From: Candidatus Binatia bacterium
GTDB taxonomy: Bacteria; Desulfobacterota; Binatia; HRBIN30
Assembly (NCBI GenBank): GCA_026415395.1
Contig: JAOAHD010000001.1
Span: forward strand, 62,001 to 126,000
Reading direction: 5' to 3'
DNA length: 64,000 bases
The notes below the pieces were generated by a model that was not told the origin of the DNA, ran no database searches, and saw nothing but the letters and a program-made list of their open reading frames with translations. Positions 6,978-61,599 of this stretch are shown here, piece after piece. Numbering within the stretch: the first letter of the stretch is position 1; each line of letters begins with the position of its first letter. A program made the translations under genes and the position numbers.

Positions 6978-8552
6978 CTACTGCGGAACGTAGCTTGCCG
7001 CTAACGCACAAAACGCCTCGACCTCCCGCTGTACCCAGTGCTCGTCGCGCCCCAGTTCTTTCGCCATCAAGCGAGCCACGGTCGGAGCCATGGCCATTGC
7101 GGCGCGCGCGTTCAAAAACGTGGCGCGCAACCGCCGCGAGAGCACGTCTTCCACCGTCCGTGCAAATTCGTGACGAACTGCCCACACCACCTGCACCGCC
7201 CGATACGGCAGTGCCGGATGCAAGAATTCGCCCAGTTCGGGAGCAGCGAGCATCAGGCGCTGCAATACCACGGCGTCCGACCCATACGGAGCGAGGTCAC
7301 CGAACCGCTCGGCGTTGAGGTGATAACCGTGCAAGTTGAGCACGCGCGTCACGCACGGGCGTTCCTCTAGCTCGGCAAGCATGGCTGCGTGATTCACACA
7401 GTCCTCGGCCATGTTTCGGTACGTCGTCCACTTCCCTCCAGTGATCGTGAGCAAGCCGTTCTGATCGACGTGAATCTTATGGTCGCGCGACAACGCCGCC
7501 GTGGACTTACCGTTGCCCGAGCGCACCAGCGGTCGGATACCAGCAAACATGCTGAGTACGTCGTCGCGCGTCGGCGCTTTATGAAGGTAAAGTGCCGCCG
7601 TGCTCAAAATGAAGTCGATTTCCGCCGCTAAGGGGCGCGGCTCAGGGCTGACTTCTGAGATTGGTGTGTCGGTCGTGCCAATTAGCGTGTGACCGCACCA
7701 CGGGATCGCGAAAAGAACGCGGCCATCGCTCGTATGTGGCACCATGATGGCTACGTCGGAGGGCAGAAACGAGCGGTCGAACACGAGATGAATGCCCTGA
7801 CTCGGGGAGATCAGCGGCGACGCATTGGGATCCGCGAGGCGGCGGACCTCATCGACAAACGGCCCCGCGGCATTGACGACAACCTTCGCCTGTACTGGAA
7901 ACTCTTCTCCGGTCTCGGCATCGCGGGCCCGCACGCCGCGCACGACACCGTCAGCCCCGCGTTCGAGCGCGACGACACCGCAGTGATTCAAGATCACCGC
8001 CCCTTGCTCCGCCGCCGTCTGTACCAGCGCCACGAGGAAGCGCGTATCGTCGAACTGGCCGTCATAGTACAGCACGCCACCGCGCAGACCTTCCCGCCGA
8101 ATCGTCGGCAAGAACTCCAACGTTCTTTCCTTCGAAAGATTGCGCGACTTACCGAAACCGTAGCGGCCCGCCAGCAGGTTGTAGACCCGCAAGCCGGCAC
8201 CGTAAAACGGTCCTTCCCACCAAGCGTAAGTGGGAACGACAAAGGCAAGATCGGTCACGAGATGCGGAGCGTTTTGTCGCATAATCCCCCGCTCGCGCAA
8301 CGCCTCCATCACCAGCGGCACGTCACCCCGCTCGAGGTAGCGCACCCCCCCGTGTACCAACTTGGTGCTGCGACTGGATGTACCCTGTCCAAAATCCCCA
8401 CGCTCGAAAAGAACAACGTCGTAACCTCGCGCGGCAGCGTCGAGCGCCACTCCGACGCCGGTCGCGCCGCCGCCAATGACAACAATGTCCCAGGGGCGAC
8501 TGCGTCGCCGCACAGCGTCGAGAAGTTCTTCGCGGGATGGAAGGCGATACAT
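6978..8552 (-). CDS. glpD: FAD-dependent glycerol-3-phosphate dehydrogenase
   Basis: Membrane-associated flavoenzyme that oxidises sn-glycerol-3-phosphate to dihydroxyacetone phosphate and passes electrons to quinone. The 524-residue product has the FAD-binding GGGATGVGVALDAAARGYDV near its N-terminus, TSSRSTKLVHGGVRYLE, FAIPWCGHTLIGTTDTP and ITGGKWTTYRNMAED, followed by the C-terminal helical domain. The ATG at 8552 was preferred to one at 8627 because the family begins close to the Rossmann strand and because GGAG precedes it. The product could feed glycerol or phospholipid-derived glycerol phosphate to the triose pool used by tpiA. Confidence 0.95.
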   Translation of the reverse strand: MYRLPSREELLDAVRRRSRPWDIVVIGGGATGVGVALDAAARGYDVVLFERGDFGQGTSSRSTKLVHGGVRYLERGDVPLVMEALRERGIMRQNAPHLVTDLAFVVPTYAWWEGPFYGAGLRVYNLLAGRYGFGKSRNLSKERTLEFLPTIRREGLRGGVLYYDGQFDDTRFLVALVQTAAEQGAVILNHCGVVALERGADGVVRGVRARDAETGEEFPVQAKVVVNAAGPFVDEVRRLADPNASPLISPSQGIHLVFDRSFLPSDVAIMVPHTSDGRVLFAIPWCGHTLIGTTDTPISEVSPEPRPLAAEIDFILSTAALYLHKAPTRDDVLSMFAGIRPLVRSGNGKSTAALSRDHKIHVDQNGLLTITGGKWTTYRNMAEDCVNHAAMLAELEERPCVTRVLNLHGYHLNAERFGDLAPYGSDAVVLQRLMLAAPELGEFLHPALPYRAVQVVWAVRHEFARTVEDVLSRRLRATFLNARAAMAMAPTVARLMAKELGRDEHWVQREVEAFCALAASYVPQ

Positions 8553-8928
8553 CTGCACCCGACTCCAATCGGCTTGTCTAACCAAAATTTGCCTCAGCGT
8601 CACACCTGTTTCTCGCAGCCTGAACACCGAGACCTGCCATCACCCGGCAGACGCCTGGCAACGGCGCTTCTCCCCCAACGCTCGGCACGGAACAAAGCGG
8701 AAAGAAGTCGCGGGGCTTCGCTCACTATGGCGGCCACGCTCGATGGCTCACTAAATTGCCGGCAAACCTGCCGTTCGGCGATGAAGGACAAGCACCAGAA
8801 CGACGTAATCGAGATCTGCCTCCACCGAGCGATCCAGGGAGATGCGCAAGCCCCCTTGAGCGTCACAACGAGAACACAACCACCGAGGGTTTGTTTCCTC
8901 GGAGCAAGCCTTCCGGAATCCAGCTCAC
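8553..8928. other. intergenic region between pgl end and glpD start
   Basis: No gene recognised. It should contain the 3' end of the tal-pgi-gnd-zwf-pgl transcript and the glpD promoter, both reading leftwards. An inverted repeat lies close behind pgl (see terminator entry). Confidence 0.5.
8883..8902 (-). terminator. possible transcript-end hairpin after pgl
   Basis: CCGAGG (8883-8888) and CCTCGG (8897-8902) form a perfect six-pair stem with an eight-base loop, 27 bases behind the pgl stop codon. On the minus strand it is followed by a T/G-rich stretch rather than a clean T-run, so factor-independent termination is uncertain. Confidence 0.35.
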
Positions 8929-9675
8929 CTAACCATCGAGTCGCCTCGCTGCGGCCTCGTCGAGAAACCAAACAAGCTCCCCGTCGTGCGGGCAAACGCC
9001 ACGTGCCGGCACCTCTTCCACTGCGCCAGTGGGGCTGAACACGCGGGCCACAGCCTCGGCCTTGTCTCGGCCCGTAACCAAAAACAGCACACAGCGCGCT
9101 GCGTTGAGCACCGGGTACGTCATCGTGAGTCGGGTTGTGCGGAGCTGCGGAACGGGGTTTGCCACAACCCAGTGGCGACGCTCCTGCAGCGCCACCGTGC
9201 GAGGAAACAGCGACGCTGTGTGGCCATCGGCTCCCAAGCCCAGCAACACCAAGTCGAACCGCGGTGGGTGGCTCTTCCACTGGACGCCAAATGCGCGCGC
9301 CATTTCTTCCTCGTACGCCCGGGCCGCAGCGGGAAGGTCGAGATCCTCACCGCGCATGCGGTGAATTTGCCCAGGGGCAATCCCAAGAGGTTGGAGCAGC
9401 GCCTCCGAAGCCATGCGATAATTCGAGTCCGGATCCGTGGGCGGCACCGGGCGCTCGTCGCTCCAAAAGAAGTGCACCTGTCCCCACGTCACCATCGGGC
9501 GAAACTCATCGCCTGCCAGCATTTGGTACATTCGTTTGGGCGTACTCCCACCCGAAAGCGCAACAAACGTGGTCGCGTTGCGCGAACGATCGGCAATTTG
9601 TCGCACGAACTCTTCGGCTGCCGCACGGCTTGCGGCCTCGTGGTCGCGGGCAACGTGCACGCGGGCGGCAGTCAT
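8929..9675 (-). CDS. pgl: 6-phosphogluconolactonase (DevB/Pgl type)
   Basis: Hydrolyses 6-phosphogluconolactone, the second step of the oxidative pentose-phosphate pathway. The 248-residue protein shows the family motifs ALSGGSTPKRMY, HFFWSDERPVPP, SNYRMASEALL and LLGLGADGHTASLFP, the last containing the catalytic His. The ATG at 9673-9675 overlaps the zwf stop as ATGA, indicating translational coupling; longer frames upstream lie inside zwf. It is the last gene of the tal-pgi-gnd-zwf-pgl unit. Confidence 0.95.
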   Translation of the reverse strand: MTAARVHVARDHEAASRAAAEEFVRQIADRSRNATTFVALSGGSTPKRMYQMLAGDEFRPMVTWGQVHFFWSDERPVPPTDPDSNYRMASEALLQPLGIAPGQIHRMRGEDLDLPAAARAYEEEMARAFGVQWKSHPPRFDLVLLGLGADGHTASLFPRTVALQERRHWVVANPVPQLRTTRLTMTYPVLNAARCVLFLVTGRDKAEAVARVFSPTGAVEEVPARGVCPHDGELVWFLDEAAARRLDG

Positions 9676-49031: not shown

Positions 49032-51683
49032 TTAAGAGCCAGCCGCAGCCCGCACCGGCGCTCCCACAGATTCCACCACGGCAAAGCGCAAATGTCGGGC
49101 AAGGCGCTCTTGCAGCGCCTCGAGTTCCGCAAAGCGCGCGCCGCGTTCCACCACCCGCTCCTTTCGGTCGCCCACCAACGTCACGTACCCCAGTTCGGCG
49201 TAACGTTGCACAGCGTTCTCGAAAGTGACGGAAGAATTGCCTTCAGGGCGTCGCACTTCCCCGAGCAACAACGCGGTGTCGTAGCGCTTGCGTGCTTGCG
49301 CGAGCACGGTCTTCAAGGGTTGCCCTGTCGGCGGCAGCAATGCCAGGGTGCGGGCCATCACCCAATACGCTTCGCAAAAGTTGTCCAGTAACCCTTGCGT
49401 GGTGTCGACAAACGGGTGGCTCGGGTCCATGCGTCCCTGCCCCTCCGGATCCCACGCGCCCTCTTCGCGGTAGTACGCCAACACTTCTGCCACTTCCGTC
49501 GGCACGGTTTGTTTTTCCGGCAGAGGGAACTCCCAGCGATAAAAATCCAGCCACCACGACACCTGCTGCTCGAGTTCTGCGCCGCGGAAGCCTTGCAACA
49601 AGGCGCGCGACACCAGCGCTGGCATGAGAAAGAAATGAATGATGTTGTTCTTATAAAAATCGAGGGTCATCCGTTTGTCGGCTGGCACATGGATGACCAC
49701 TTCGTCGCCGCGCAGGCGGCGGATCAAACCACCATTTTCCAAGAACCCCAGGTTCTCGAGAAAGTCGTTGGCATTGCGCTCGAGGGACGCGGTGAGGGTG
49801 ACCTTGCGATGGCGGAGAAACTTCACCAACGCTTGGGCTCGTTGCAGAAACTCCTGATACCGCCAGGCAGCTTCGGCGCGGCTGAGGAGCACCGTGGCGC
49901 TCACCGCCGTTGCCCCGGCAACCGCAACTTCGTTCACTGCGCGCAAAATCCGAAAGCCAAGTTTCTGGATGAAGCGGCGCTTCTCTTCTTCTACTTGCGG
50001 GTCGCCCGCATGCTCGCGGAAGCGCTCCAAACGGTCGCCGAGGGCCTCGCGCAGGGAAATCGGATCAGCAAAGGTGACGTACACTGTGCCCCGGTTCTGC
50101 CGCAGCACCGTGCGCGCCCGAATCAGCGCCCACAACGATTCCTTTTCCTTCTCGGCGCCGAATAGCTCGCGCTTGTACGATTCCTCTTCCACCACGCGGC
50201 CATACTGGATGGAGACTGGCACGAGGTACAAATCGCGCCGTACGCCGGAGATAAAGGCATTCACGATGGCCGAGAGCATGCCGAGCTTCGGCGTGAGGAT
50301 TTTGCCCGTCCGGCTGCGCCCGCCCTCGATGAAGAACTCCTGCGTATATCCCTCGCGAATCAGGAACTTCAGGTAACTGCGAAATACCGCCTTGTAGAGC
50401 GGATCATTGTCGAAACTCCGGCGGATGAAGTACGCACCGGCGCCGCGAAACAGGGGCCCCAACGGCCAGAAGGACAAATTGATTCCAGCAGCAATGTGCG
50501 GGGGGCTCATGTAGTTGATGTGGAACAAATACGAGAGAATCAGGTAATCGAAGTGGCTACGGTGGCAGGGGACAAGAACGACCGGATGCTGTTTGACGCA
50601 CTCGATCACCTTATCGAGACCGCGGTAATCAACGCCCTGGAAGATCCGCGGCCAGATGCGGTTAAAAGCGAACTCCAGGATGGCGAAAAACGCGCCCTGG
50701 TAGTTGGCAGCCATCTCGTCGAAGTACTTCTCTGCCGTGCGCCACAACTTGGATTCTGGCTGGCCGGTCTGCTGAGCCAGTGCGCGCACCGTCGACCTAA
50801 CCTCGTCCTCCCCCAACACAATTTGCCGTACGACTCGCTTCGGCAACAGCGTCGGCCCCCAGACCAATTTTTCTTCCCGGTACAAGAAAATCTGCAGTGC
50901 ACGCGCTACTCGACGAACGACGCGCTCTTCTCCCTCCGCACGATATTGCGCCAGCATTTCCTGCACGGAGACATGCCTGCCCACAGTGATGCTGGTTTCC
51001 TTGGCGTTCCACCACAAGGACAACAGCCGCTTGAGCTCGCCTGGGGCCTCTTGCACGCTGTACACCAGCGTCGCCAAGCGGGATTCTTTACGGCGAAAGC
51101 CGCGGCCGCGCAGCACCGCCAAGGGCACGAGAAACACTTCCTGCCCGTGCGTTGCCGCGGTGTGCACGATCTCCCGCAAATAATCCGTGCCGCTGCGCGC
51201 CTGACGAATTGCGGCGCGCCGGCTTTGACGGAGCGGCAGCCCGCGTACGTGGCCGCGCATGAAAATCAGCGCGGGCTGCCGGTTGCGCACCACTTGTTGA
51301 AGCCGGCTGAGATCCTCCAAGTGGCGCGTGCCGCGGGTGTGCCAGCGCCCACTGCGGAGTCGCTCCCAAAGCGTGCGGAAAATTTCGCCCACCGGACGGA
51401 GGAGCAAACTCGGAATGTCCGACACGAACGCTGGCAACGGTAAGCCCTCGCGCAACAACACGAACGCAACCAGCATGTAATCGACCAGCGAGCGGTAGCG
51501 CATCACGTACACCACCGTGCCCTGTTGGCTGAGATTGCGGATGTGTGCCACCGCTCCCGGGTCCAAACGAATATGGGCCAAAAACCGCTCGCAAAACCAG
51601 CGTGGCAACCAGCCCAGGCGTTCCATCGGCCCGGGCTCGCTCCACCAATCGTTGCCTGCACGGGCTGCGAGTTCTTCGTTCAT
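49032..51683 (-). CDS. plsB: glycerol-3-phosphate 1-O-acyltransferase PlsB
   Basis: Large membrane-associated acyltransferase (883 residues) that starts phospholipid synthesis by acylating sn-glycerol-3-phosphate. The acyltransferase block is clear: LVPCHRSHFDYLILSYLFHI (HX4D), INLSFWPLGPLFRGAGAYFI, FIEGGRSRTGKILTPKLGML and VPVSIQYGRVVEEESYKREL, followed by the PlsB C-terminal region. A second, degenerate-looking block near the N-terminus (VVYVMRYRSLVDYMLVAFVL) resembles the half-copy seen in other PlsB proteins. It lies downstream of a fatty-acyl-CoA ligase gene on the same strand, which could supply its acyl donor. Confidence 0.94.
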   Translation of the reverse strand: MNEELAARAGNDWWSEPGPMERLGWLPRWFCERFLAHIRLDPGAVAHIRNLSQQGTVVYVMRYRSLVDYMLVAFVLLREGLPLPAFVSDIPSLLLRPVGEIFRTLWERLRSGRWHTRGTRHLEDLSRLQQVVRNRQPALIFMRGHVRGLPLRQSRRAAIRQARSGTDYLREIVHTAATHGQEVFLVPLAVLRGRGFRRKESRLATLVYSVQEAPGELKRLLSLWWNAKETSITVGRHVSVQEMLAQYRAEGEERVVRRVARALQIFLYREEKLVWGPTLLPKRVVRQIVLGEDEVRSTVRALAQQTGQPESKLWRTAEKYFDEMAANYQGAFFAILEFAFNRIWPRIFQGVDYRGLDKVIECVKQHPVVLVPCHRSHFDYLILSYLFHINYMSPPHIAAGINLSFWPLGPLFRGAGAYFIRRSFDNDPLYKAVFRSYLKFLIREGYTQEFFIEGGRSRTGKILTPKLGMLSAIVNAFISGVRRDLYLVPVSIQYGRVVEEESYKRELFGAEKEKESLWALIRARTVLRQNRGTVYVTFADPISLREALGDRLERFREHAGDPQVEEEKRRFIQKLGFRILRAVNEVAVAGATAVSATVLLSRAEAAWRYQEFLQRAQALVKFLRHRKVTLTASLERNANDFLENLGFLENGGLIRRLRGDEVVIHVPADKRMTLDFYKNNIIHFFLMPALVSRALLQGFRGAELEQQVSWWLDFYRWEFPLPEKQTVPTEVAEVLAYYREEGAWDPEGQGRMDPSHPFVDTTQGLLDNFCEAYWVMARTLALLPPTGQPLKTVLAQARKRYDTALLLGEVRRPEGNSSVTFENAVQRYAELGYVTLVGDRKERVVERGARFAELEALQERLARHLRFAVVESVGAPVRAAAGS

Positions 51684-51821
51684 GGCTCGTTCCTCTCAGG
51701 CAACCTTAGAGCGAGTCGCCACCTTCGCCAACACACCACCTCAGCCTCGGACGGCGAGTAGACACAATTTCGATCGAGGCCGCTCTCGCGTTTCTAGCCG
51801 AACACGTAGCCGCCTTTCTTC

Positions 51822-53441
51822 TCACTTGCTCGGCCAGCGATAGTCGCGAAAGCGCTCGCGCAATTCGCGCTTGGCAATTTTTCCCACGCTAGTTTTCGGC
51901 AACGCATCCAGAAACACGACGTCGTCGGGCAGCCACCACTTCGCAACCCGCGGCTCCAAAAACGCCAGGAGTTCTTCCTTCGTAAGAGTCTCTCCCGGCT
52001 TGACGACCACACAGGCAAGCGGTCGCTCCTGCCAGCGCTCGTGTGGCAAGCCAATCACGGCGGCCTCGGCGACTTTCGGATGAGCCATGATGGTGTTTTC
52101 CAGTTCGACGCTCGAAATCCACTCACCGCCGCTCTTGATCACGTCCTTGGCGCGGTCGGTAATTTGCAGGTATCCGTACTCGTCGATCGTACCGATGTCA
52201 CCAGTTTTGAACCAGCCGCGGTCGAACGACGCAGCCGATCGCTCGTCCTTGTAGTACGATCCGACGATCCACGGTCCCCGTACCTGCAGCTCACCCACAC
52301 TTTTTCCGTCCCACGGCTGTTCGCTGCCGTCTTCGGCAACGATGCGCATGTCCACAAACGGCAGCGCGCGCCCTTGCTTGGCCCGCACTTTGAGTTTGCG
52401 CTCTGCAGGCCAGTCGGACATGACCGACAGCGGGTGTGACACGGAAGCCAACGGCGAGGTTTCCGTCATTCCCCATGCTTGCACCACGGTGATGCCTAAC
52501 GCATCGAAGCGCGCCAACAAGCTCTCTGGCACTGCGGAACCTCCGCAAGGGATACAGCGCAAACTGGAGAGGTCGTACGGGTGCTTCTCGACCGCGGCCA
52601 AAATGCCGAGCAACACTGTCGGCACCCCGGCAGTTACAGTCACGCGATGCGTTTCAATGAGCTGGCAAATGTCCTCCGGCGTCGGTTGCACACCAGGATA
52701 TACCTGGGTCGCTCCGATCATCGTGGCCCCATAAGGCAAGCCCCAGGCGTTCGCGTGGAACATGGGCACCACGGGCATCACCACGTCCGACTCGCGAAGA
52801 CCGAAGGCATCCGCCAGGCACTGGCCGAACGTATGGAGCACAAGGGCACGGTGCGAGTAGAGAACACCTTTCGGGTTACCGGTGGTACCCGACGTGTAGC
52901 ACATTGCCGCGGCTGTTTGTTCGTCCAAGCGCGGAAACGGGTCGCTCGTCGGTGCGTGCCGGAGCAAGTCTTCATAACCATAAATCGGAGACAAGCTGGT
53001 TTGCGGCGGAGGCCCATCGTCCATCACCACATAGGCTCGCACCGAACGCAACTCCGGTGCGAGCTTCTCGAGCTGAGGCACCAAGGACCGATCGACAAAA
53101 ATCACGGCATCTTCAGCGTGGTTGACGATGTAAGCAATTTGCTCCGGGAACAGGCGAATATTCAGCGTATGCAACACGCGTCCACTCGCGGGCACGCCAA
53201 AATACAGCTCCAGGTGCCGGAATGTGTTCCAGGCGAACGTGCCGACTCGTTCACCGGGCCGGATTCCAAGCGTTTTCAGCACGTGCCCTAATTGGCAGGC
53301 GCGCCGGTACAGATCCGCGTACGTGTACTCGGCAACCCCGTACTGGGTGCGCGACAAGATTCGCTTCTCCCAAAACAGCCGGGCAGCACGGCGCACCAGA
53401 TGGGTCAGCAGCAGGGGTTCGTCCATCATCAGGCCGTTCAT
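51822..53441 (-). CDS. fatty-acid/acyl-CoA ligase (AMP-forming)
   Basis: 539-residue ANL-superfamily ligase forming acyl-CoA through an acyl-adenylate. Seen: the P-loop [100 protein letters not shown] and the catalytic lysine in [14 protein letters not shown]. This pattern is that of medium/long-chain fatty-acid ligases. The ATG overlaps the murE stop (ATGA), so the two are translationally coupled although functionally distinct. Confidence 0.92.
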
Positions 53442-54997
53442 CGTTCATCCTCCCTTGCACCTTGTGCAGAAGAACTGCGCGCCCGCCAAGCCCCTTGCAA
53501 GGCGCCCCGTGCGCGCAGTGCCTCGCGGGCCACAGCGCAATCGTCGAACGGAAGCTTCTGCCCGCCAAAAATCTGGTAGGTTTCGTGCCCTTTTCCCGCG
53601 ATCATCACAAGATCGCCGGGCTTCGCTTCCCTGATCGCGCTTGTGATGGCGCGCCGCCGGTCAACGTCAACGCGCAGTTTACTGGCGTACTCTCGCGGCA
53701 CCCCCGCAACGATCTCCGAAATGATTGCTTCGGGATCTTCGTCGCGCGGATTGTCCGACGTTACCACCACCACATCGCTCAGCCGCGCGGCTACCTCGCC
53801 CATCAGCGGGCGTTTGCCGCGATCGCGGTTACCGCCGCAACCGAACACGGTGATGATCCGCCCTCGTGCAAGGCTGCGCGCCCCCGTCAGTAATCGCTCC
53901 AAGGCGTCGGGCTTGTGGGCGTAGTCGACGATGACCAAAAACTCCCCTCCCGGGTTCACTACTTCGAAGCGGCCTGGAACCTGCGGCACCGCAGCGAGTC
54001 CCGCAACCACAGTGTCCCGTGGCAACCCAAGCGCGATGCCGACCGCAAGCGCTGCCACTGCGTTGGCCACTTGGAACGCACCGGGAACCGGCAAACGCAC
54101 TTCGCACGGGCCGAGTGGCGTCATCGCAGAAAACCACGTGTCCGTGGGAGAGATGCGTGTTTCCACCACGCGCACGTCCGCGCGGTCCCCCTGGCCATAA
54201 GTCAACAGCCGGCCGCGGTTGACTTCTATCATGTACGGAGCCGCGGCATCGTCGATGTTGATCACCGCGATCCCGTCTTTGCCGCCGCTCGCTAGCTCCT
54301 CGAACAAGCGTCCCTTGGCGCGGCGGTAATGGTGCATGTCGGGGTGAAAGTTCAGGTGGTCGCGTCCGAGGTTGGTAAACACCCCAACGTCAAACGCTAC
54401 CTCCGCCACGCGCCGCAGCTCCAGCGCATGTGAGGACACCTCCATCACGACCGCACGACAGCCAGCGTCGACGGCTCGCCGCAGCAAGGCTTGCAGCTCA
54501 TGAGCTTCCGGCGTTGTCTGCCGTGCTGGATACACCTCGCCGCCGATACGATGCTCCACAGTGCCGAAGCGGGCAGTGGGCCAACCCGCGTTACGCAACA
54601 CCGCATCCACGAAGTACACTGTCGAGGTTTTCCCGGAGGTGCCCGTGACGCCGACGACCACGAGGTCGCGAGATGGCTGGCGGTAGAACCGGCTCGCGAT
54701 CTGTGCATGCGCCAGCCACACGTCGGGCACGCGCACAACCGTGACTCCCTCCGAGACAGTCACGGGCCGCTCCACCACCAACGCCGCGGCTCCCCGCGCA
54801 ACCGCCTCGGGGATGAAATCGTGGCGATCGGCCCGGGTTTCACCGCCCTCGGTGCGGTAGCCAGTCAGGCACACGAAGAGACTACCTGGCTCTACCTCCC
54901 GCGAGTCGGCAACGATGGAGGACACCTGAACGTCCCAGCGACCTTGCAATAACTCGTGAGGCGTTCCTTTCAGGAGAGATTGCAGCGAATGCGACAC
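53438..54997 (-). CDS. murE: UDP-N-acetylmuramoyl-tripeptide synthetase MurE (meso-DAP type)
   Basis: Adds the third amino acid to UDP-MurNAc-L-Ala-D-Glu. The 519-residue protein has ADSREVEPGSLFVCLTGY, the ATP site VVGVTGTSGKTSTVYFV, TTPEAHELQALL, VMEVSSHALELRRVAEVAF, IVDYAHKPDALERLL and GGNRDRGKRPLMG. VVTSDNPRDEDPEAI carries DNPR, the signature of enzymes using meso-diaminopimelate. The GTG at 54997 was chosen because it lies just after the previous gene's stop and fits the family N-terminus. No other mur genes are in view. Confidence 0.95.
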   Translation of the reverse strand: MSHSLQSLLKGTPHELLQGRWDVQVSSIVADSREVEPGSLFVCLTGYRTEGGETRADRHDFIPEAVARGAAALVVERPVTVSEGVTVVRVPDVWLAHAQIASRFYRQPSRDLVVVGVTGTSGKTSTVYFVDAVLRNAGWPTARFGTVEHRIGGEVYPARQTTPEAHELQALLRRAVDAGCRAVVMEVSSHALELRRVAEVAFDVGVFTNLGRDHLNFHPDMHHYRRAKGRLFEELASGGKDGIAVINIDDAAAPYMIEVNRGRLLTYGQGDRADVRVVETRISPTDTWFSAMTPLGPCEVRLPVPGAFQVANAVAALAVGIALGLPRDTVVAGLAAVPQVPGRFEVVNPGGEFLVIVDYAHKPDALERLLTGARSLARGRIITVFGCGGNRDRGKRPLMGEVAARLSDVVVVTSDNPRDEDPEAIISEIVAGVPREYASKLRVDVDRRRAITSAIREAKPGDLVMIAGKGHETYQIFGGQKLPFDDCAVAREALRARGALQGAWRARSSSAQGAREDER

Positions 54998-55007
54998 CGA
55001 GCCGCGT

Positions 55008-56441
55008 CTATAGCACGCGCACAATCATCGAGCGCGACGGCCCAACATTCCCGTCCACATCGCGCAGCCGAACGGTAATCAACGTCTCGCCCGTCGGGAA
55101 CGCGATGGCAGCGTCCACCATCGCGCAGAATTGCACTTGGCTCTCCTGGCTCGCAAAGCCGTAGTCCCCGCTCGCAAGCAGCATGCACTGCTCGCCTTCG
55201 TAACGGCCGAACGGCTGATCCTGCCCATCGCGGAAGCGGCACGCAAAGTCGTTGACGCGCGCAATGTTGTCTACGCTCAGCTCAAAGTTCACCGGATTCG
55301 TTGCGGGCACGCCGCCACCAGCGACCGGCGTGGCCCCGGGGCGCGCCTCGGCACGATCGCACACTTCTGGACTGCCGTTACCCAAGTCGCGCGAGGTCCA
55401 AATTTGCAAGTCGGGAAAGGTCACCAAATCAGGTTGGAACGTGCGCGGGCTGACGGGCTTTCCGCTCGTGCCGGGCTTCCCTTCGATCACCAGGCCAAAA
55501 CCGAAGCCACCCCGCCTAGTGTAGACAGGGGTGCCGTCGTCGGTCACGTCCGTAGGCTCCACTAGCGTACCGTCCGCCCGGGTGATTCCCAGGAAGGTTA
55601 CCACCGGCCCCTGCGCCGACACCGGCGGAAGCGTGGGCGTGGCCGTGGGGCTTGGAGGAGCAGTGGCTGGGGGCTGCACGCGCACAACGATCCGCGCAGT
55701 GGGTCCCACGTTCCCCAAAATGTCGCGCAGGCGAACGCTGAGCACGGTATCTCCGACGGGGAAGCTCATCAGACGCGAAACTTGCGCGCAATACTGCACA
55801 GTGCTGGCCGGGTTCACGAAGCCGAAGTCGCCCGAGGGAAATAACGTGCAAGCGTCTGCCGGGCCGACGCCCGAGGGCTTTCCTTCGCCATCGCGGAAGC
55901 GGCAAGCAAAATCGTTAATGGCCGCGGTGATCTCCGGGGTGGCTGAGAAATCTGCCGGCTCCACCGCTGGCACACCGCCTCCCGGTGGCGACACATCGCA
56001 CACCGCTAAGCTCCCATCGCCGAGCGCGCGGGAGGCTACGATTTGCAAGTCCGGCAAGCTCGCGAGATCCTCCTGAAAGGTGGACAGACCTACCGGCGCG
56101 CCACTCACCCCAGGAGCGCCTTCCACGACAATGTAAAAGCCAGCGCCGGCTGGGCGCACGTAAATCGGAACACCCTCCTCGTTGGTACCGCTCGGTTCGA
56201 GGACGACACCATCCGCCCGTGCCAGGGCGAAATAAGAGACACGCGGACCAATTGTTGGTGCGGGTGTGGCGGTGGCAGTAGGACTGGGCGACAGGGTCGG
56301 CGTGGTCAGCACAGGCGCCGTCCAAGTCGGCGACGGAACCAAGTTCCCGAGTTCATCGTCATCACCGCTGCAGCCCGCCAAAGCGCTCAAAACAGCAACC
56401 ACCCACCCGACAACCCACCACCGCGCCCCAAGCCTCGTCAT
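55008..56441 (-). CDS. lipoprotein with two copies of a four-cysteine domain (unknown family)
   Basis: 477 residues. A lipoprotein signal (MTRLGARWWVVGWVVAVLSALAGC, shown here to its Cys24) is followed by a Thr/Pro linker and two domains of about 190 residues (roughly 66-256 and 280-477) joined by a short PPSPTATPTLPP linker. Each domain reads: SYFALARADG or TFLGITRADG, then GVPIYVRPAGAGFYIVVEG, PDLQIVASRALGDGS, VCD, GGGVPA, NDFACRFRDG, ACTL or QCML, QYCA or QFCA, and FPxGDTxxxVRLRD. The same domain occurs three times in the next gene. Surface location is likely; I recognise no enzyme motif. Confidence 0.82.
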   Translation of the reverse strand: MTRLGARWWVVGWVVAVLSALAGCSGDDDELGNLVPSPTWTAPVLTTPTLSPSPTATATPAPTIGPRVSYFALARADGVVLEPSGTNEEGVPIYVRPAGAGFYIVVEGAPGVSGAPVGLSTFQEDLASLPDLQIVASRALGDGSLAVCDVSPPGGGVPAVEPADFSATPEITAAINDFACRFRDGEGKPSGVGPADACTLFPSGDFGFVNPASTVQYCAQVSRLMSFPVGDTVLSVRLRDILGNVGPTARIVVRVQPPATAPPSPTATPTLPPVSAQGPVVTFLGITRADGTLVEPTDVTDDGTPVYTRRGGFGFGLVIEGKPGTSGKPVSPRTFQPDLVTFPDLQIWTSRDLGNGSPEVCDRAEARPGATPVAGGGVPATNPVNFELSVDNIARVNDFACRFRDGQDQPFGRYEGEQCMLLASGDYGFASQESQVQFCAMVDAAIAFPTGETLITVRLRDVDGNVGPSRSMIVRVL

Positions 56442-56853
56442 CTCTCCGCCCTCCCGTCTCGCCGGCCTTTGTTCACGATGCCGTCGTTTCCTACCGCGAA
56501 TGGCTTAAAAGTACAACGCTCGCAGCGCGGTCTGAAAGCCGCTGGATTCCGGCCGAGGGACTTCAGCGGTCAGCACCGCGACGGGCGCACGGCGCTACTT
56601 TCTCCGTCCTATGACCGGGCACGTCGAGACACTCCCGATCCAAGAAGCCCATCGGCCATAAGTGTGGATCGTCGCTGCAGCCCCTCCAACGTCCCTCGCT
56701 GCCTGCCGGTGAGCGCCTGGATCCCCAGATCGAGGGCAGCGAGGTCGGCGCGCGCTGCGGCTCTTTGATCGTTCCATCGTGGCGCCACCACAAGACCTCG
56801 GAACTCCCCCGCCCGGCCCCTCGGCACCCGGGCAGGGTGCGTCCTTCGCTTTG
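56442..56853. other. region between the two four-cysteine-domain genes
   Basis: About 410 bases with the promoter of the 55008-56441 gene. A low-confidence small open frame (56609-56857) overlaps the end of the larger gene; otherwise nothing is recognised. Confidence 0.45.
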
Positions 56854-56857
56854 TCAC
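56609..56857 (-). CDS. possible small coupled protein, unknown
   Basis: 82 codons opening with a GTG that overlaps the stop of the dockerin-domain gene as GTGA, the coupling style used repeatedly in this genome. The product is Arg/Ala-rich (LAALDLGIQALTGRQRGTLE) with no recognisable domain, and no family support. It could equally be chance coding in GC-rich DNA. Confidence 0.22.
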   Translation of the reverse strand: MTKRRTHPARVPRGRAGEFRGLVVAPRWNDQRAAARADLAALDLGIQALTGRQRGTLEGLQRRSTLMADGLLGSGVSRRARS

Positions 56858-59577
56858 CCGGTCACGCGCACAATCAGTTGGGCAACGGAACTCGTCGCAC
56901 CATTGGTGTCTCTGACGCGTACGCTCATCAACGTGTCCCCCGGGGGGAACTCCCAGGCACGATCGACGAAGGCACAGAACTGAACCGTACTCTCAGCTCG
57001 CACAAAACCAAAGGCGCCCGTCCCGAAGAGAACACAGGCATCTGCCAAGCCTCGGCCTCGTGGTTCATCGGCACCGTCGCGAAATCGGCACGACAAGTCA
57101 TTTACGGCCGCAACGTCATCGAAGCGCGGTGGGTCAGTTGCCGGAACTCCGCCGGCTGTCGGGGGCCGGTAATCGCACACGTCCTCGCTGCCATTGCCGA
57201 GTGCACGGCTGGCCACCACCTGCAGATCGGGCAGCCCCGAAAGGTCTGCCTGGAAGGTCGAGAGTCCTACGGCCGCCCCAGAGGGCCCAGGTTTTGCCTC
57301 GACGACCAGCAGAAATCCTGCACCCAACGGGCGGCTGTAAATCGGCACTCCGCCGGCGCTAACGTTGTCCGGTTGCAGCAACGATCCATCGGCGCGGGCG
57401 ACGCCAAAGAAGGTTACGGTCGGCCCGGGACTCTCCGTTGGGGTTGAGCTCGGCGTGCGCGAGGGCGTACGCGTGGGCGAGGCCGGCACCGTTGTTCGCG
57501 TGGGCTTCGGGCTGTTGCCACCGGTGCCAGAGGTTGGTGAAGGAGAGCCAACCGTCGCCGGAAGCGTCGCCGTTCGCGTAGGCGTTCGCGATCGCGTGGC
57601 CGTTGCGGTTGGAGAGGGAGTCGCCGTCGGTGAGCCACCGCTGCCCACGCGCACGACAATTTGCGCCGTCGGGCCCGGCACACCGCTTCCAGGAGGCGCA
57701 TCGGCGGCTGCTTGATCGAGCACGCGTACGGTCAACACCGTGTCCCCGGGAGGGAACTCCAAGATGCGTGTCACCGGCGCACAAAATTGGACAGACGTAT
57801 CTACGCCGACAAACCGAAAATCCAACTCTGGAGGTACACGCGTGCAAGCTTCTTGGCTGCCACGCCCACGCGGGGTCCCCGCGCCATCGACAAAGCGGCA
57901 GCCAAAATCGTTCATGATACGGATGTTGGTCTCCGTAGGCAGGTAGCTCGGGGGGTCCAGCGCAGGAACGCCGCCGGCGGATGGCCCGCTATTGTCGCAC
58001 GCGGCATCGCTGCCATCTCCGAGCGGGCGCGACGCCACGATCTGCAAATCAGGCATCGCGACAAGGCTCGGCACAAATGTGTCGCTGCCCACTTCATTGC
58101 CACTCGGCCCGCGGGCCGCTTCCACTACGATGTTGAAACCGAACCCTTGCGGGCGCACGAAAATTGGCACTCCTTGCGGAGTCGTGCCCACAGGGTCGAG
58201 GAGCGTATCATCGGAACGCGTAAGCCCGAAATAGCGGATCACCGGCCCGGGCGGAGCAGTTGGCGAGTGCGTTGCCGTGCGCGTGGGCGTCGCCGTCGCC
58301 GAGCGCGTCGGAGTTGCCACGGGGGTTGCACTGCGAGTCCGCGTGCGGCTCGGCGTCGATGTAGGTGTCAACGGGCGCGCCGTGGTTGCTACCGGCAACG
58401 TGGCTGTGGGCGTGCGGGTCGGGACGGTTGTGGCGAGACTCGCCGTTGCCGCTGCTGTGGCGGTGAGCAAGGACACGCTGCCGGTCGGCGAGGCAGTGAC
58501 CGTGGCACTCCCGACGCCCATTGTACGCGTGGCCGTCGCTGTGGGGATCACGATGCTGTGCGTAGGCGTCGGTGAGGGGGGCAATGTATGCGTTCTCGTG
58601 GGCGTGGCAGGCGGGGTGCCAGTCGCAGTGGGCGACGGAGGCCACGTTGCGGTTGGAGTCCGCGTGCGGGAGGGGCTCACCCGCACCAATGTTGCGGAGG
58701 GGCTCGGTGTGGCGGTCGGGGTTGGCTCGGACGGACCGGGCCCGACCCGCAGGCGGATTTGTGTTAGCGGTCCTAAGTTCCCTGCTCGATCGCGTACTGC
58801 CACTGTGACCAGCGTTTCGCCGTCGGAAAAAATCAACTGTCGCGTCACCTGCAGACAAAACTGAACTTGGGTCGCGTCGTTCACAAATGTAGCGCGGCCA
58901 AAGCGATCGCTCGTGCACGCAAATGCCGGAGCCGTCGCGACAGCGAAGTTGCAGGATAAGTCGTTCATCGCATCGGTGATGCGCCGGAGGGGTCGCAAGT
59001 CTGGCGGGTGAACGGCCGGGACTCCTCCATCGCACACTGCCGGACTGCCATCGCCTAGCGGCCGACTCACCAGGATCCACAAATCGGGGCGAACCGTCGG
59101 ATCCCGCGGGTCGCTCGCGAAAATCGTCTGCCCTACAGAAACACCGGCGGCACCCGGGCGCGCCTCGATCACCAGCTTAAAGCCTTGCCCCGCGGGGCGA
59201 GCGTAAACCGGCACACCGGCAATGGTTGCAGTACGACTGAGCGGCGAACCGTCGGCTGCAGCCAGGCCAAGGTAGGTAACCTCCGGTCCGAGCGCGGGCG
59301 GCGCTGCCACCAGCCCAGCGAGTGCAGGGAAATCCGCCGCCGATAGGACTAAGTCGAAGTTTTGGTCAGCAAAGCCGCAAGCGGAGGCCCCACCAGCAAA
59401 CAACCGTTGCGCGGCAGCCAGCAAGTCCTGCCGGTCGACGCTGCCATCGCAATTCACATCGCCCGGCAGTTGCGCCCAGACGGAGGAGTCAGCCGCCAAG
59501 GCACCGACCAGGAGAAGGGCAACCAATATTCGCAAGCCCCATTGCCGCCACCCCTGCTCCGACATTGCCGCCTTCAT
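56854..59577 (-). CDS. secreted protein: dockerin-like repeats plus three four-cysteine domains on Thr/Pro linkers
   Basis: 907 residues from the ATG at 59577 (AAGGAG just upstream). Order: signal peptide ending near VWAQLPG; dockerin-type calcium loops GDVNCDGSVDRQDLL and ADQNFDLVLSAADF (about 38-90); domain 1 (about 97-282); a Thr/Pro/Ser/Arg linker of about 160 residues; domain 2 (about 445-640); a second linker of about 70; domain 3 (about 714-907). The domains share GVPIYSRPLGAGFLLVVEA-like and FPPGDTLMSVRVRD-like motifs and four invariant cysteines (VCD, CRF, ACV, QFCA). They are 40-60% alike by eye to each other and to the two in the neighbouring lipoprotein. Probably exported; a binding or surface-structural role is inference. 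Confidence 0.85.
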   Translation of the reverse strand: MKAAMSEQGWRQWGLRILVALLLVGALAADSSVWAQLPGDVNCDGSVDRQDLLAAAQRLFAGGASACGFADQNFDLVLSAADFPALAGLVAAPPALGPEVTYLGLAAADGSPLSRTATIAGVPVYARPAGQGFKLVIEARPGAAGVSVGQTIFASDPRDPTVRPDLWILVSRPLGDGSPAVCDGGVPAVHPPDLRPLRRITDAMNDLSCNFAVATAPAFACTSDRFGRATFVNDATQVQFCLQVTRQLIFSDGETLVTVAVRDRAGNLGPLTQIRLRVGPGPSEPTPTATPSPSATLVRVSPSRTRTPTATWPPSPTATGTPPATPTRTHTLPPSPTPTHSIVIPTATATRTMGVGSATVTASPTGSVSLLTATAAATASLATTVPTRTPTATLPVATTARPLTPTSTPSRTRTRSATPVATPTRSATATPTRTATHSPTAPPGPVIRYFGLTRSDDTLLDPVGTTPQGVPIFVRPQGFGFNIVVEAARGPSGNEVGSDTFVPSLVAMPDLQIVASRPLGDGSDAACDNSGPSAGGVPALDPPSYLPTETNIRIMNDFGCRFVDGAGTPRGRGSQEACTRVPPELDFRFVGVDTSVQFCAPVTRILEFPPGDTVLTVRVLDQAAADAPPGSGVPGPTAQIVVRVGSGGSPTATPSPTATATRSRTPTRTATLPATVGSPSPTSGTGGNSPKPTRTTVPASPTRTPSRTPSSTPTESPGPTVTFFGVARADGSLLQPDNVSAGGVPIYSRPLGAGFLLVVEAKPGPSGAAVGLSTFQADLSGLPDLQVVASRALGNGSEDVCDYRPPTAGGVPATDPPRFDDVAAVNDLSCRFRDGADEPRGRGLADACVLFGTGAFGFVRAESTVQFCAFVDRAWEFPPGDTLMSVRVRDTNGATSSVAQLIVRVTG
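58245..58735 (-). repeat. low-complexity DNA coding the long Thr/Pro/Ser linker
   Basis: Irregular short repeats encode units such as TPTATP, SRTRTPT and SATPVATPT. The units are not tandem-identical at DNA level, so they look maintained by selection on composition rather than by recent slippage. A shorter stretch of the same kind lies at about 57435-57645. Confidence 0.7.
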
Positions 59578-59823
59578 TCGCTCCTTCGAACAAGGGCGCA
59601 CGTTACCCTACGGTGTTGGGGGACACAACGCGCCTTATGCGCGGCGACTCACCTGCGCGGCCTCGCCCGAGAGCGAGCCAACTTGCCGACCGTTGTCCTC
59701 ACTCGCCCAGCACAGGATGCGTTTCCGCTTGACTCGACAGCCGGGACGGAAGTACAAGACGAACAATTGTTCGGGGAGATCGGGAGGCCCCGGCGAGAGC
59801 AGATACCCGCTGAGGGGGATGCG

Positions 59824-61579
59824 ATGAGGTGGACAAAACAGTGCGGTCGAGGTTTGGTGTGGGTTCTTAGCGTGGTCGTGGCGGCGCCGTGCTTCGGGAT
59901 GCCGATCGACGAAGCGCAAAACTTTCAGTTGCGGCTGCGGGCATACAGCCGGTTCTCCATCAGGGTTCAAGATTCCGACTCGCCGCCCGGTGGCGACACC
60001 GTGCCGGTAACGAAAATGGGCCAAATGGTGGAGCACCGCAATTTCTACAACCCTGAGTTCGAGGGCAAGCTTACGCCGTACTGGCCGAGCTGGCTCGCCG
60101 CATTTAAGCCGGACGATTTGAGTTTCCGAGTTGCTGCTTGGGGTTTTTACGATGGGATATATGACTACGGCCCAAAGCAATTTCGCGACGCGGCACGCCG
60201 CGTGAACGCGGGCTGGCCGCGGCCACTTCGGCTCGGCGCTTTTTACCTCGAGGGACCGGACTTCGTCGACCAACCCACCGGCACGGTAGAAAGCTACTTC
60301 CCGCACGTGGAGGTCCAAAATCCGCGCGACATTTACGCCACCCGACGGCGGATTAACGAGCTGTACCTGAACTTCAGCAAAGGGCCATTGTTTGTTCGCA
60401 TTGGCCGCCAAGCAATTTCCTGGGGCGAGGCGGACACGGTTGCGCTACTCGATCAAAACAACCCCTTCGACGTCACCCTTGGAGCACCGGGAATTTTTCA
60501 AGAGATCGACGAGGCGCGCATTCCCCTGTGGACAATTCGGACTAGCCTGAGCTTATTCGAAACCCTCGGGCCACTCTCCAGCGGCTTTGCGGAAGCCTAC
60601 TGGGTTCCGGGCGACCTCGACGTGAACACGGGCATTTTGCCGCTTCTTGGCGTCAGCCCGTACTCGCCAGGTGGAAAGGACCCACAGCAACTCCTGCGCG
60701 ATCAACTTGGGCCACTGTATGAAGGCGCTCGCGTGCAGTTTGTGCTGCAAGACCTCATCCCGCGCAAGCGGTTCGAAAACAGCCGTTACGGCTTTCGCGT
60801 ACAAACTGTGATTAACCGCTTCTTCACAGTCAGCGGCTGGGTGTACACCACGTTTCCACAACAACCTGTTCCCCTCGGCCGCGGGCTAAGGCGCACGCCT
60901 GAGGGAACATCGCTGTTCATCACCCAGACAGTTCACAATGAGCGCTTCATGGCCTTTGGTCTCGCTAATACGTTCTTCGTCGAGCCGATCGACAGTATCA
61001 TTCGGATGCAGGTCGTCTATTTCGACAACGAGCCTGGGTTCATTCCCGAGATCAACCTGGGGATCACCAAGGATACTCCGAACAACCCCTTGAGTGTGCT
61101 CACGGCGTGCTACCGAGCGGCGGAGCGGAAACAACTGTGCACGATCCCCACTGCGGACGTCATCCGTTGGGAACTTGGGATCGACCGTTTCTTCTTCGCC
61201 CGCTTCCTCAACCCCAGCAACAGCTTCACTTGGATCACAGCATTTGTAGGTTCCTGGAACCTCGACGAAACGAATGCGAAGGACTTCCGCCTAGCAGGTC
61301 AGCGCAAGCCAGGTCGCGCGGCCTTGTCGCCCGACGACTACGTGCAACAAAAGGCGGTGGAAGCGTTTGTGCAAACTCACCTGGAGACGAACTATGCACA
61401 CGGCCGCGTTACGCCCGGAATAACTTTAATCGGCAATGTGCGTGGGACCTACGTAGTCAACCCCGTGATTACCTACCGGATGTTCGACTGGTTACTGTTC
61501 GACCTGAATTACATCCACATCGGCGGCGAGTATCAGCAAGTGGGCTTCTTCCGCGATCGCGATCAAGTGTCGGCACGAG

Positions 61580-61599
<20 letters not shown>
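59824..61599 (+). CDS. DUF1302-type outer-membrane protein
   Basis: 591 residues from the ATG at 59824 (GAGGGGG upstream; the frame is open further back but without a signal). A Sec signal peptide ends near PCFGMPIDEA; the mature protein is aromatic-rich and strand-like throughout (FQLRLRAYSRFSIRV, LSFRVAAWGFYDGIYDYG, ELYLNFSKGPLFVRIGRQ, AISWGEADTVALLDQNNPFD) and ends VSARVTYQLN with the terminal residues of a beta-barrel strand. This is the DUF1302 pattern, usually paired with DUF1329 proteins and linked to uptake of hydrophobic compounds; no DUF1329 gene is in view. Divergent from the dockerin-domain gene, with 246 bases between starts. Its last 20 bases overlap the end of rmd. Confidence 0.85.

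What the first reader, a model, noticed from the sequence alone, without database searches (positions are those of the whole stretch)
55008..59577. An undescribed secreted domain in five copies with four invariant cysteines, on two neighbouring genes
Two adjacent genes encode a lipoprotein (two copies) and a dockerin-containing secreted protein (three copies) built from one domain of about 190 residues. All five copies keep ADG near the start, a GVPxYxRPxGxGF strand, PDLxIxxSRxLGxGS, then four cysteines in fixed order (VCD, a Cys after the NDF/NDL block, ACxL, QFC/QYC) and FPxGDTxxxVRxRD at the end. Seen directly in sequence. The fixed cysteines imply two disulfides and an extracytoplasmic fold. 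I recognise no named family. The spread between copies and the Thr/Pro linkers suggest a modular surface protein, possibly held by a dockerin-like partner.
Basis: partly seen in the sequence, partly recalled or inferred. Interest (0 to 1): 0.7.

Follow-up and report, generated by a model that had tools for sequence, protein, structure and literature searches.

The report
Order-specific Ig-like surface domain family
Two neighbouring genes of an uncultured bacterium carry five copies of a so far unnamed secreted domain with four fixed cysteines, part of a large family that our searches found in one bacterial order only, carried on flexible stalks that look tied to the cell by a lipid or by a calcium-binding docking module.

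Summary
Genes 55008-56441 and 56854-59577 (both minus) carry two and three copies of one ~190-residue domain (43-60% identical). Pfam, NCBIfam and PDB sequence searches give only chance-level matches for it. AlphaFold gives a confident model (mean pLDDT 97.3) that looks Ig-like, with a family-specific insertion of ~80 residues; all four cysteines are kept in 107 of 107 distinct full-length copies examined. The window's genome has 16 copies in 11 proteins. All 15 genomes held of its order (HRBin30-type Binatia) have 7-17 copies; 0 of 133 other genomes of the class do. Of 65 complete proteins, 40 carry dockerin-like calcium modules, 23 a lipobox, 2 are undetermined, and none is clearly both (one doubtful). 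The window's module is predicted to have a dockerin fold (Z 9.4). Cohesins occur in 14 of 15 genomes of the order against 6 of 133 outside it; two congeners have triple-cohesin lipoproteins, but the window's genome shows one marginal cohesin only. Best reading: a new Ig-like binding module displayed by lipid or by non-cellulosomal cohesin-dockerin docking. Ligand, disulfide pairing and cohesin binding are untested.

The parts
56370..56441 (-). Signal peptide with lipobox (SALAGC, Cys24) of the lipoprotein gene
   Evidence: read in translation; motif listed (row L001, the same gene)
56250..56333 (-). Thr/Pro-rich linker before the first copy of the lipoprotein
   Evidence: read
55680..56249 (-). 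Domain copy P1a (lipoprotein, first copy)
   Evidence: model mbe3257ca7dbd, mean pLDDT 97.3
55611..55679 (-). Short Thr/Pro linker between P1a and P1b
   Evidence: row L001, 22 residues, 64% S/T/P
55011..55610 (-). Domain copy P1b (lipoprotein, second copy)
59476..59577 (-). Signal peptide of the three-copy gene (start taken at ATG 59577; GTG 59601 is also open)
59290..59475 (-). Dockerin-like module with two calcium loops (DVNCDGSVDRQD, DQNFDLVLSAAD)
   Evidence: Pfam Dockerin_1 E 0.0074, 0.0013 and 0.0006, each below the cut-off score; predicted fold Z 9.4 to 6kge_B; loops (row L004, the same gene)
58744..59289 (-). Domain copy P2a, directly after the dockerin-like module (N-terminal clade)
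   Evidence: model m1ae5beea9acc
58249..58743 (-). Thr/Pro/Ser-rich linker, ~165 residues
   Evidence: 60% S/T/P
57643..58248 (-). Domain copy P2b
57427..57642 (-). Thr/Pro/Ser-rich linker, ~73 residues
   Evidence: 66% S/T/P
56860..57426 (-). Domain copy P2c; groups with P1a and P1b in the tree

Best explanation
The repeated unit is an extracellular, probably Ig-like beta-sandwich whose family-specific insertion is pinned by four invariant cysteines (two disulfides, inferred). It is a binding or packing module displayed on the outside of the cell. The lipoprotein gene holds two copies close to the membrane by a lipid. The second gene holds a base unit (dockerin-like module plus N-terminal copy, no linker) and carries the later copies away on Thr/Pro stalks; the dockerin would clip the protein to a cohesin at the cell surface, as proposed for non-cellulosomal cohesin-dockerin systems. 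Shown: the copies, their architecture and selection, lineage restriction within the collections searched, cohesins in the order. Predicted: the two folds. Inferred: disulfides, outer-surface location, cohesin binding, ligand binding (adhesion to a glycan or a partner surface is my likeliest role).
For: Four cysteines 107 of 107; in 6 copies, which form one clade, two further cysteines appear together, as a third disulfide would. Confident model whose best structural rows are PorU's C-terminal region (Z 8.0, 110 residues), CopC, FN3 modules and Siglec-like adhesins. Anchors look exclusive: 40 dockerin-like, 23 lipobox, 2 undetermined of 65 complete ORFs, none clearly both. All 25 first copies of complete multi-copy dockerin-type ORFs fall in one clade of 27 (SH-aLRT 96) and the first copies of the 8 two-copy lipoproteins fall outside it. 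Dockerin fold Z 9.4, rmsd 1.8 over 58 residues; five of the six top rows are dockerin or cohesin-dockerin entries. Cohesins in 14 of 15 genomes of the order and 6 of 133 others of the class; triple-cohesin proteins with a lipobox in two congeners. Linkers between copies 18-714 residues, 55-73% S/T/P.
Against: The window's own genome shows only one cohesin, barely above the cut-off as a whole protein (24.6 against 24.1 bits; best PDB cohesin E 0.1), on a protein with its own dockerin-like tail, and no triple-cohesin protein was found. G148 has domains but no cohesin found. The cohesin contrast is between one clade and the rest, so it may be a single event. The dockerin-like sequence drifts about as fast as the linkers (dN 0.46-0.48), matches PDB dockerins only at E 0.079 or worse, and 13 of 40 modules show one calcium loop only. 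No ligand-site evidence. The neighbours seen are mostly housekeeping-type genes and give no functional hint.
Confidence: 0.55

Rival explanations
1. The dockerin-like module is only a calcium-stabilised structural cap of the neighbouring N-terminal copy; no cohesin is involved and the proteins are simply secreted or held by other means.
For: 13 of 40 modules show one loop only; the module lies within 62 residues before the N-terminal-clade copy in 25 of 25 complete multi-copy dockerin-type ORFs and that copy forms its own clade, as if the two were one unit; one marginal cohesin in the window's genome.
Against: Dockerin fold with both loops in the window copy; three proteins carry the module at the C-terminal end instead; co-occurrence with cohesins by order; no clear case with both dockerin and lipid anchor.
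Confidence: 0.3
2. A carbohydrate-binding module or lectin of a secreted polysaccharide-degrading system (a true cellulosome-like complex).
For: Dockerins, cohesins and beta-sandwich modules are parts of cellulosomes (recalled; dockerins and cohesins also in the passages of PMC9012536).
Against: The six other dockerin-bearing proteins listed carry PPC, weak Matrixin-like, FG-GAP or no further Pfam domain, and no glycoside hydrolase; Pfam shows no enzyme domain in the 11 domain proteins.
Confidence: 0.1
3. A purely structural envelope or appendage building block whose copies pack against each other rather than bind a foreign ligand.
For: Many copies per genome (7-17), strong purifying selection, and a polar set (D85, R117, R173 in P1a numbering) kept in 77-80 of 80 other copies but in only 11-12 of 27 N-terminal ones.
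Against: Length-variable stalks (73 to 714 residues between copies of dockerin-type proteins) do not suit a lattice.
Confidence: 0.2

Closest known systems
Type I dockerin (Pfam PF00404) and cohesin (PF00963) modules
   Same: Calcium loops, mostly DxNxDGxxxxAAD; predicted loop-helix fold (Z 9.4 to 6kge_B); cohesins above the Pfam cut-off in 14 of 15 genomes of the order
   Different: The window module scores below Pfam's cut-off; 13 of 40 relatives show one loop only; 0 of 6 other dockerin proteins of the genome is a glycoside hydrolase
Non-cellulosomal cohesin-dockerin systems of methanotrophic archaea and their sulfate-reducing partners (PMC9012536, PMC10553843; passages read)
   Same: Cohesin/dockerin proteins, multi-cohesin proteins and Ig-like adhesins outside cellulose degradation
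   Different: There common dockerin proteins are ABC substrate-binding proteins, in ANME-2c also S-layer proteins; here a lineage-specific domain is the recurrent partner, in another bacterial lineage
Ig-like modules: C-terminal region of PorU (6za2), HYR repeat (PF02494), Siglec-like adhesins (SrpA, GspB, Hsa)
   Same: Beta-sandwich of about 85-115 aligned residues; weak HYR matches in 2 of 25 rows, best E 0.0025; an Ig tip on a Ser/Thr-rich stalk resembles the adhesins (recalled)
   Different: Insertion of about 80 residues with the cysteines; no HYR match in the window proteins at E up to 1; 3-17% sequence identity to the solved Ig-like structures

Membership tests
Dockerin type I (PF00404) | Two calcium-binding loops with Asp/Asn-type residues at positions 1, 3, 5 and Asp/Glu at 12 | tested here: met
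   Both loops in the window module; by the pattern used 27 of 40 modules have two, 13 have one
Dockerin type I (PF00404) | Curated Pfam score for the window protein | tested here: not met
   16.9, 19.4 and 22.3 bits against 22.9; hence called dockerin-like
Dockerin type I (PF00404) | Dockerin fold | tested here: met
   Predicted model: Z 9.4, rmsd 1.8, 58 residues to 6kge_B; 2ccl_B Z 8.8; local pLDDT 73-86
Dockerin type I (PF00404) | Binds a cohesin | not testable with these tools
   needs a binding assay
Cellulosome | Dockerin-bearing glycoside hydrolases | tested here: not met
   0 of the 6 other dockerin proteins listed for the genome
Cellulosome | Scaffoldin with several cohesins in this genome | tested here: not met
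   one cohesin only (assembly 95.8% complete); triple-cohesin proteins in congeners G153 and G154
HYR (PF02494) and other Pfam Ig-like families | Curated Pfam score for the window proteins | tested here: not met
   no such match at E up to 1 in either window protein; among relatives HYR in 1 of 61 copies (E 0.092) and 2 of 25 rows (best E 0.0025; scores against the cut-off not shown there)
Ig-like beta-sandwich fold | Sandwich topology shared with solved Ig-like domains | tested here: inconclusive
   Best Z 8.0 and 8.8 (PorU), other Ig-type rows at 5-6; Foldseek best E 0.01 and 0.0023

The most novel reading that the evidence does not exclude
The order has a 'cellulosome without cellulases': lipid-anchored multi-cohesin scaffolds on the outer membrane onto which up to 17 copies per genome of a lineage-specific, disulfide-stapled Ig-like module are clipped through dockerins on (perhaps glycosylated) stalks, as an adjustable adhesive coat that marks the order.
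Probability: 0.3. Interest if true: 0.75.

Novelty: new variant of a known kind. Interest (0 to 1): 0.5.

Why it matters
It defines a well-bounded domain family (7-17 copies per genome) restricted, within the collections searched, to one order of an uncultured phylum. The published genome survey of that phylum has no 'dockerin' or 'cohesin' in its main text (PMC8262859, term find only). It gives a marker for the order and a testable case of cohesin-dockerin display outside cellulose breakdown, with sequences ready for expression and binding tests.

Tried and rejected
Distant homologues elsewhere: profile search of 395 genomes of the phylum hit only G000 and G056 (at most 8 candidates scored per genome); a single-query search of 148 gave the same two; plasmids none with P1a; viral contigs 73 pattern matches, none confirmed; 84,980-species collection 112 pattern matches, 31 confirmed, all in 8 genomes, each equal to a genome of the order by an identical domain ORF; those scans need one of two peptide patterns and would miss relatives without them. 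Viral structure library: best E 0.028 (A0A650AJ53, probability 0.89), nothing clearer. Absences from fold lists are not evidence of absence.

Residue coupling: loss of D85 and R117 goes together in N-terminal copies (10 both kept, 13 both lost, 4 mixed, of 27), but pairs independent on the tree are too few for a test, so no salt bridge is claimed. Disulfide pairing could not be measured: no model coordinates are in the script box. Operon logic: P2-P1-murE-fadD-plsB is kept in L055 and, as far as its contig reaches (murE), in L056; plsB lies 4-5 kb from a domain gene in L066, L068, L071 and L073; this gave no functional clue.

Counting limits: the 107 distinct full-length copies come from the loci fetched, against 188 matches listed in 15 genomes; matches not spanning profile positions 8-185 were dropped before the count (for example L098, whose four cysteines I read by eye). 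Copies were found by similarity, which favours conserved columns. A1 leaves out five close congener copies of the 66. The anchor census used regular expressions and was corrected by eye: L024 (false loop) and L069 (missed lipobox) were moved to lipoproteins; lipobox-like matches in L004, L056, L066, L033, L068, L071, L077 and L031 were judged to be other cysteines (of the dockerin-like module, the linker or a neighbouring domain); L011 has a cysteine just before its module that weakly fits a lipobox and is the doubtful case; L016 and L020 stay undetermined. The class search scored at most 22 candidates per genome. The tree is a quick one with SH-aLRT support only.

Full report
What is there. 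Two adjacent minus-strand genes carry five copies of one domain: a lipoprotein (55008-56441, two copies) and a dockerin-type secreted protein (56854-59577, three copies). The copies are 43-60% identical. Between the window and two congeners the domains are under strong purifying selection (dN 0.07-0.19, dS near or at saturation, no window residue of a domain in a gap), whereas linkers (dN 0.41-0.62) and the dockerin-like module (0.46-0.48) drift.

Family and range. For the domain Pfam gives chance-level matches only (five families, one of 61 copies each, best E 0.0097), NCBIfam one chance match over 7 queries (E 0.29, 11 bits against 125), PDB sequences E 0.15 at best. The window's genome has 16 copies in 11 proteins. 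All 15 genomes held of its order have 7-17 copies each, 188 matches in all; 0 of the other 133 genomes of the class have one (up to 22 candidates scored per genome). In a sample of 395 genomes of the phylum only the window's genome and one of its order match (up to 8 candidates scored). In the named collection of 84,980 species a pattern scan confirmed 31 stretches in 8 genomes, each identical in at least one domain ORF to a genome of the order; one of them, of the window's genus, is Bacterium HR30 (HRbin30). I therefore take the order to be the one called HRBin30 in Binatota (name from PMC8262859, passages only).

Fold. AlphaFold with 61 copies gives mean pLDDT 97.3, pTM 0.93: strands 3-11, 28-30, 38-45, 68-72, then a long stretch with one helix and three of the four cysteines (84, 116, 134), then strands 151-157 (holding Cys154), 168-176, 185-189. 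Structural second look: 6za2 (PorU, residues 939-1048) Z 8.0 over 110 residues, then sulfite dehydrogenase, CopC, SrpA adhesin, FN3 and antibody-type domains at 5.0-6.2; Foldseek best E 0.01, and 0.0023 for the second model. This fits an Ig-like sandwich with a family-specific insertion, but at a strength at which a common arrangement cannot be told from kinship.

Cysteines. All four are kept in 107 of 107 distinct full-length copies. Six copies, which form one clade, have two more cysteines, always both together, as expected of a third disulfide. Pairing was not measured.

Architecture. Of 65 distinct complete ORFs, 37 have dockerin-like loops before the first copy, 3 after the last, 23 a lipobox and 2 are undetermined; none is clearly both, with one doubtful case, L011 (corrected by eye as told under Tried and rejected). 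Linkers between copies run from 18 to 714 residues with 55-73% Ser/Thr/Pro. A tree of 107 copies (quick IQ-TREE, SH-aLRT only) puts first copies of dockerin-type proteins into one clade of 27 (support 96), including all 25 from complete multi-copy ORFs; the first copies of the 8 two-copy lipoproteins and the later copies lie elsewhere. In 25 of 25 the module stands within 62 residues before that copy. The ancestral plan may thus be: signal peptide, dockerin-like module plus base copy, stalk, tip copy. P1a, P1b and P2c group together in a 12-row group (support 87), so the lipoprotein gene looks like a local offshoot of the three-copy gene. In the 80 copies outside the clade D85, D113, R117 and R173 are kept in 79, 80, 80 and 77; in the 27 inside it D85, R117 and R173 are kept in 12, 12 and 11.

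Dockerin and cohesin. The window module scores just under Pfam's cut-off and reaches PDB dockerins by sequence only at E 0.079 or worse, but its predicted fold gives cellulosomal dockerins five of the six top places among the PDB rows (6kge_B Z 9.4, rmsd 1.8, 58 residues). Cohesins above the cut-off occur in 14 of 15 genomes of the order; at E 0.001 they occur in 6 of 133 other genomes of the class. Two congeners have a lipoprotein with three cohesins (Pfam E 2e-27 and 1e-26; lipobox read by eye). The window's genome (95.8% complete) shows a single cohesin, marginal as a whole protein (24.6 against 24.1 bits), on a protein with its own dockerin-like tail, and no triple-cohesin protein was found. 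Its six other listed dockerin proteins carry PPC, weak Matrixin-like, FG-GAP or unnamed parts and no glycoside hydrolase, so this does not look like a cellulosome.

Reading. The family is best seen as an extracellular, Ig-like binding module displayed by lipid or dockerin, its later copies on Thr/Pro stalks. Precedents for cohesin-dockerin use outside cellulose degradation, with Ig-like adhesins, are proposed in methanotrophic archaea and their partners (PMC9012536 and PMC10553843, passages). No paper of the library searched holds both 'dockerin' and 'Binatia'; the Binatota survey has no 'dockerin' or 'cohesin' in its main text. Whether the dockerin binds a cohesin, and what the tip binds, is open.

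Noticed in passing
L136:8413-9873 and L136:9911-11242 (own genome, contig C16): Two paralogous secreted proteins with Thr/Pro linker end in PPIPVVPSP, a hydrophobic stretch and arginines, like a C-terminal sorting signal; no NCBIfam hit at E up to 0.1. They lie beside the cohesin-like gene.
   Followed up: partly
L134:5215-7287, L134:7291-9843, L135:4727-7402: Three copies of the domain carry a cysteine-rich insert near the start (such as CVFCCDQRC, CYWCSEPGCLC) followed by a TPTP run, possibly a metal site.
   Followed up: no
L143:2172-4598 and L144:4497-6902: Lipoproteins with three tandem cohesins in two congeners; in L144 a dockerin-like gene (below Pfam's cut-off) follows at 7427-9292.
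   Followed up: partly
window 49032-55024: MurE-like, acyl-CoA synthetase and glycerol-3-phosphate acyltransferase genes follow the two domain genes in the same direction with overlaps or short gaps; the last also lies near a domain gene in four loci of another family.
   Followed up: partly
window 59362-61599: DUF1302 gene divergent from the three-copy gene; the listed ORF start overlaps the latter, so the true start is probably further in.
   Followed up: no
L129:6349-7735: A short single-copy domain lipoprotein, in a clade of 10 from across the order, sits between what looks by eye like an endonuclease III gene and a PKD-like lipoprotein.
   Followed up: partly
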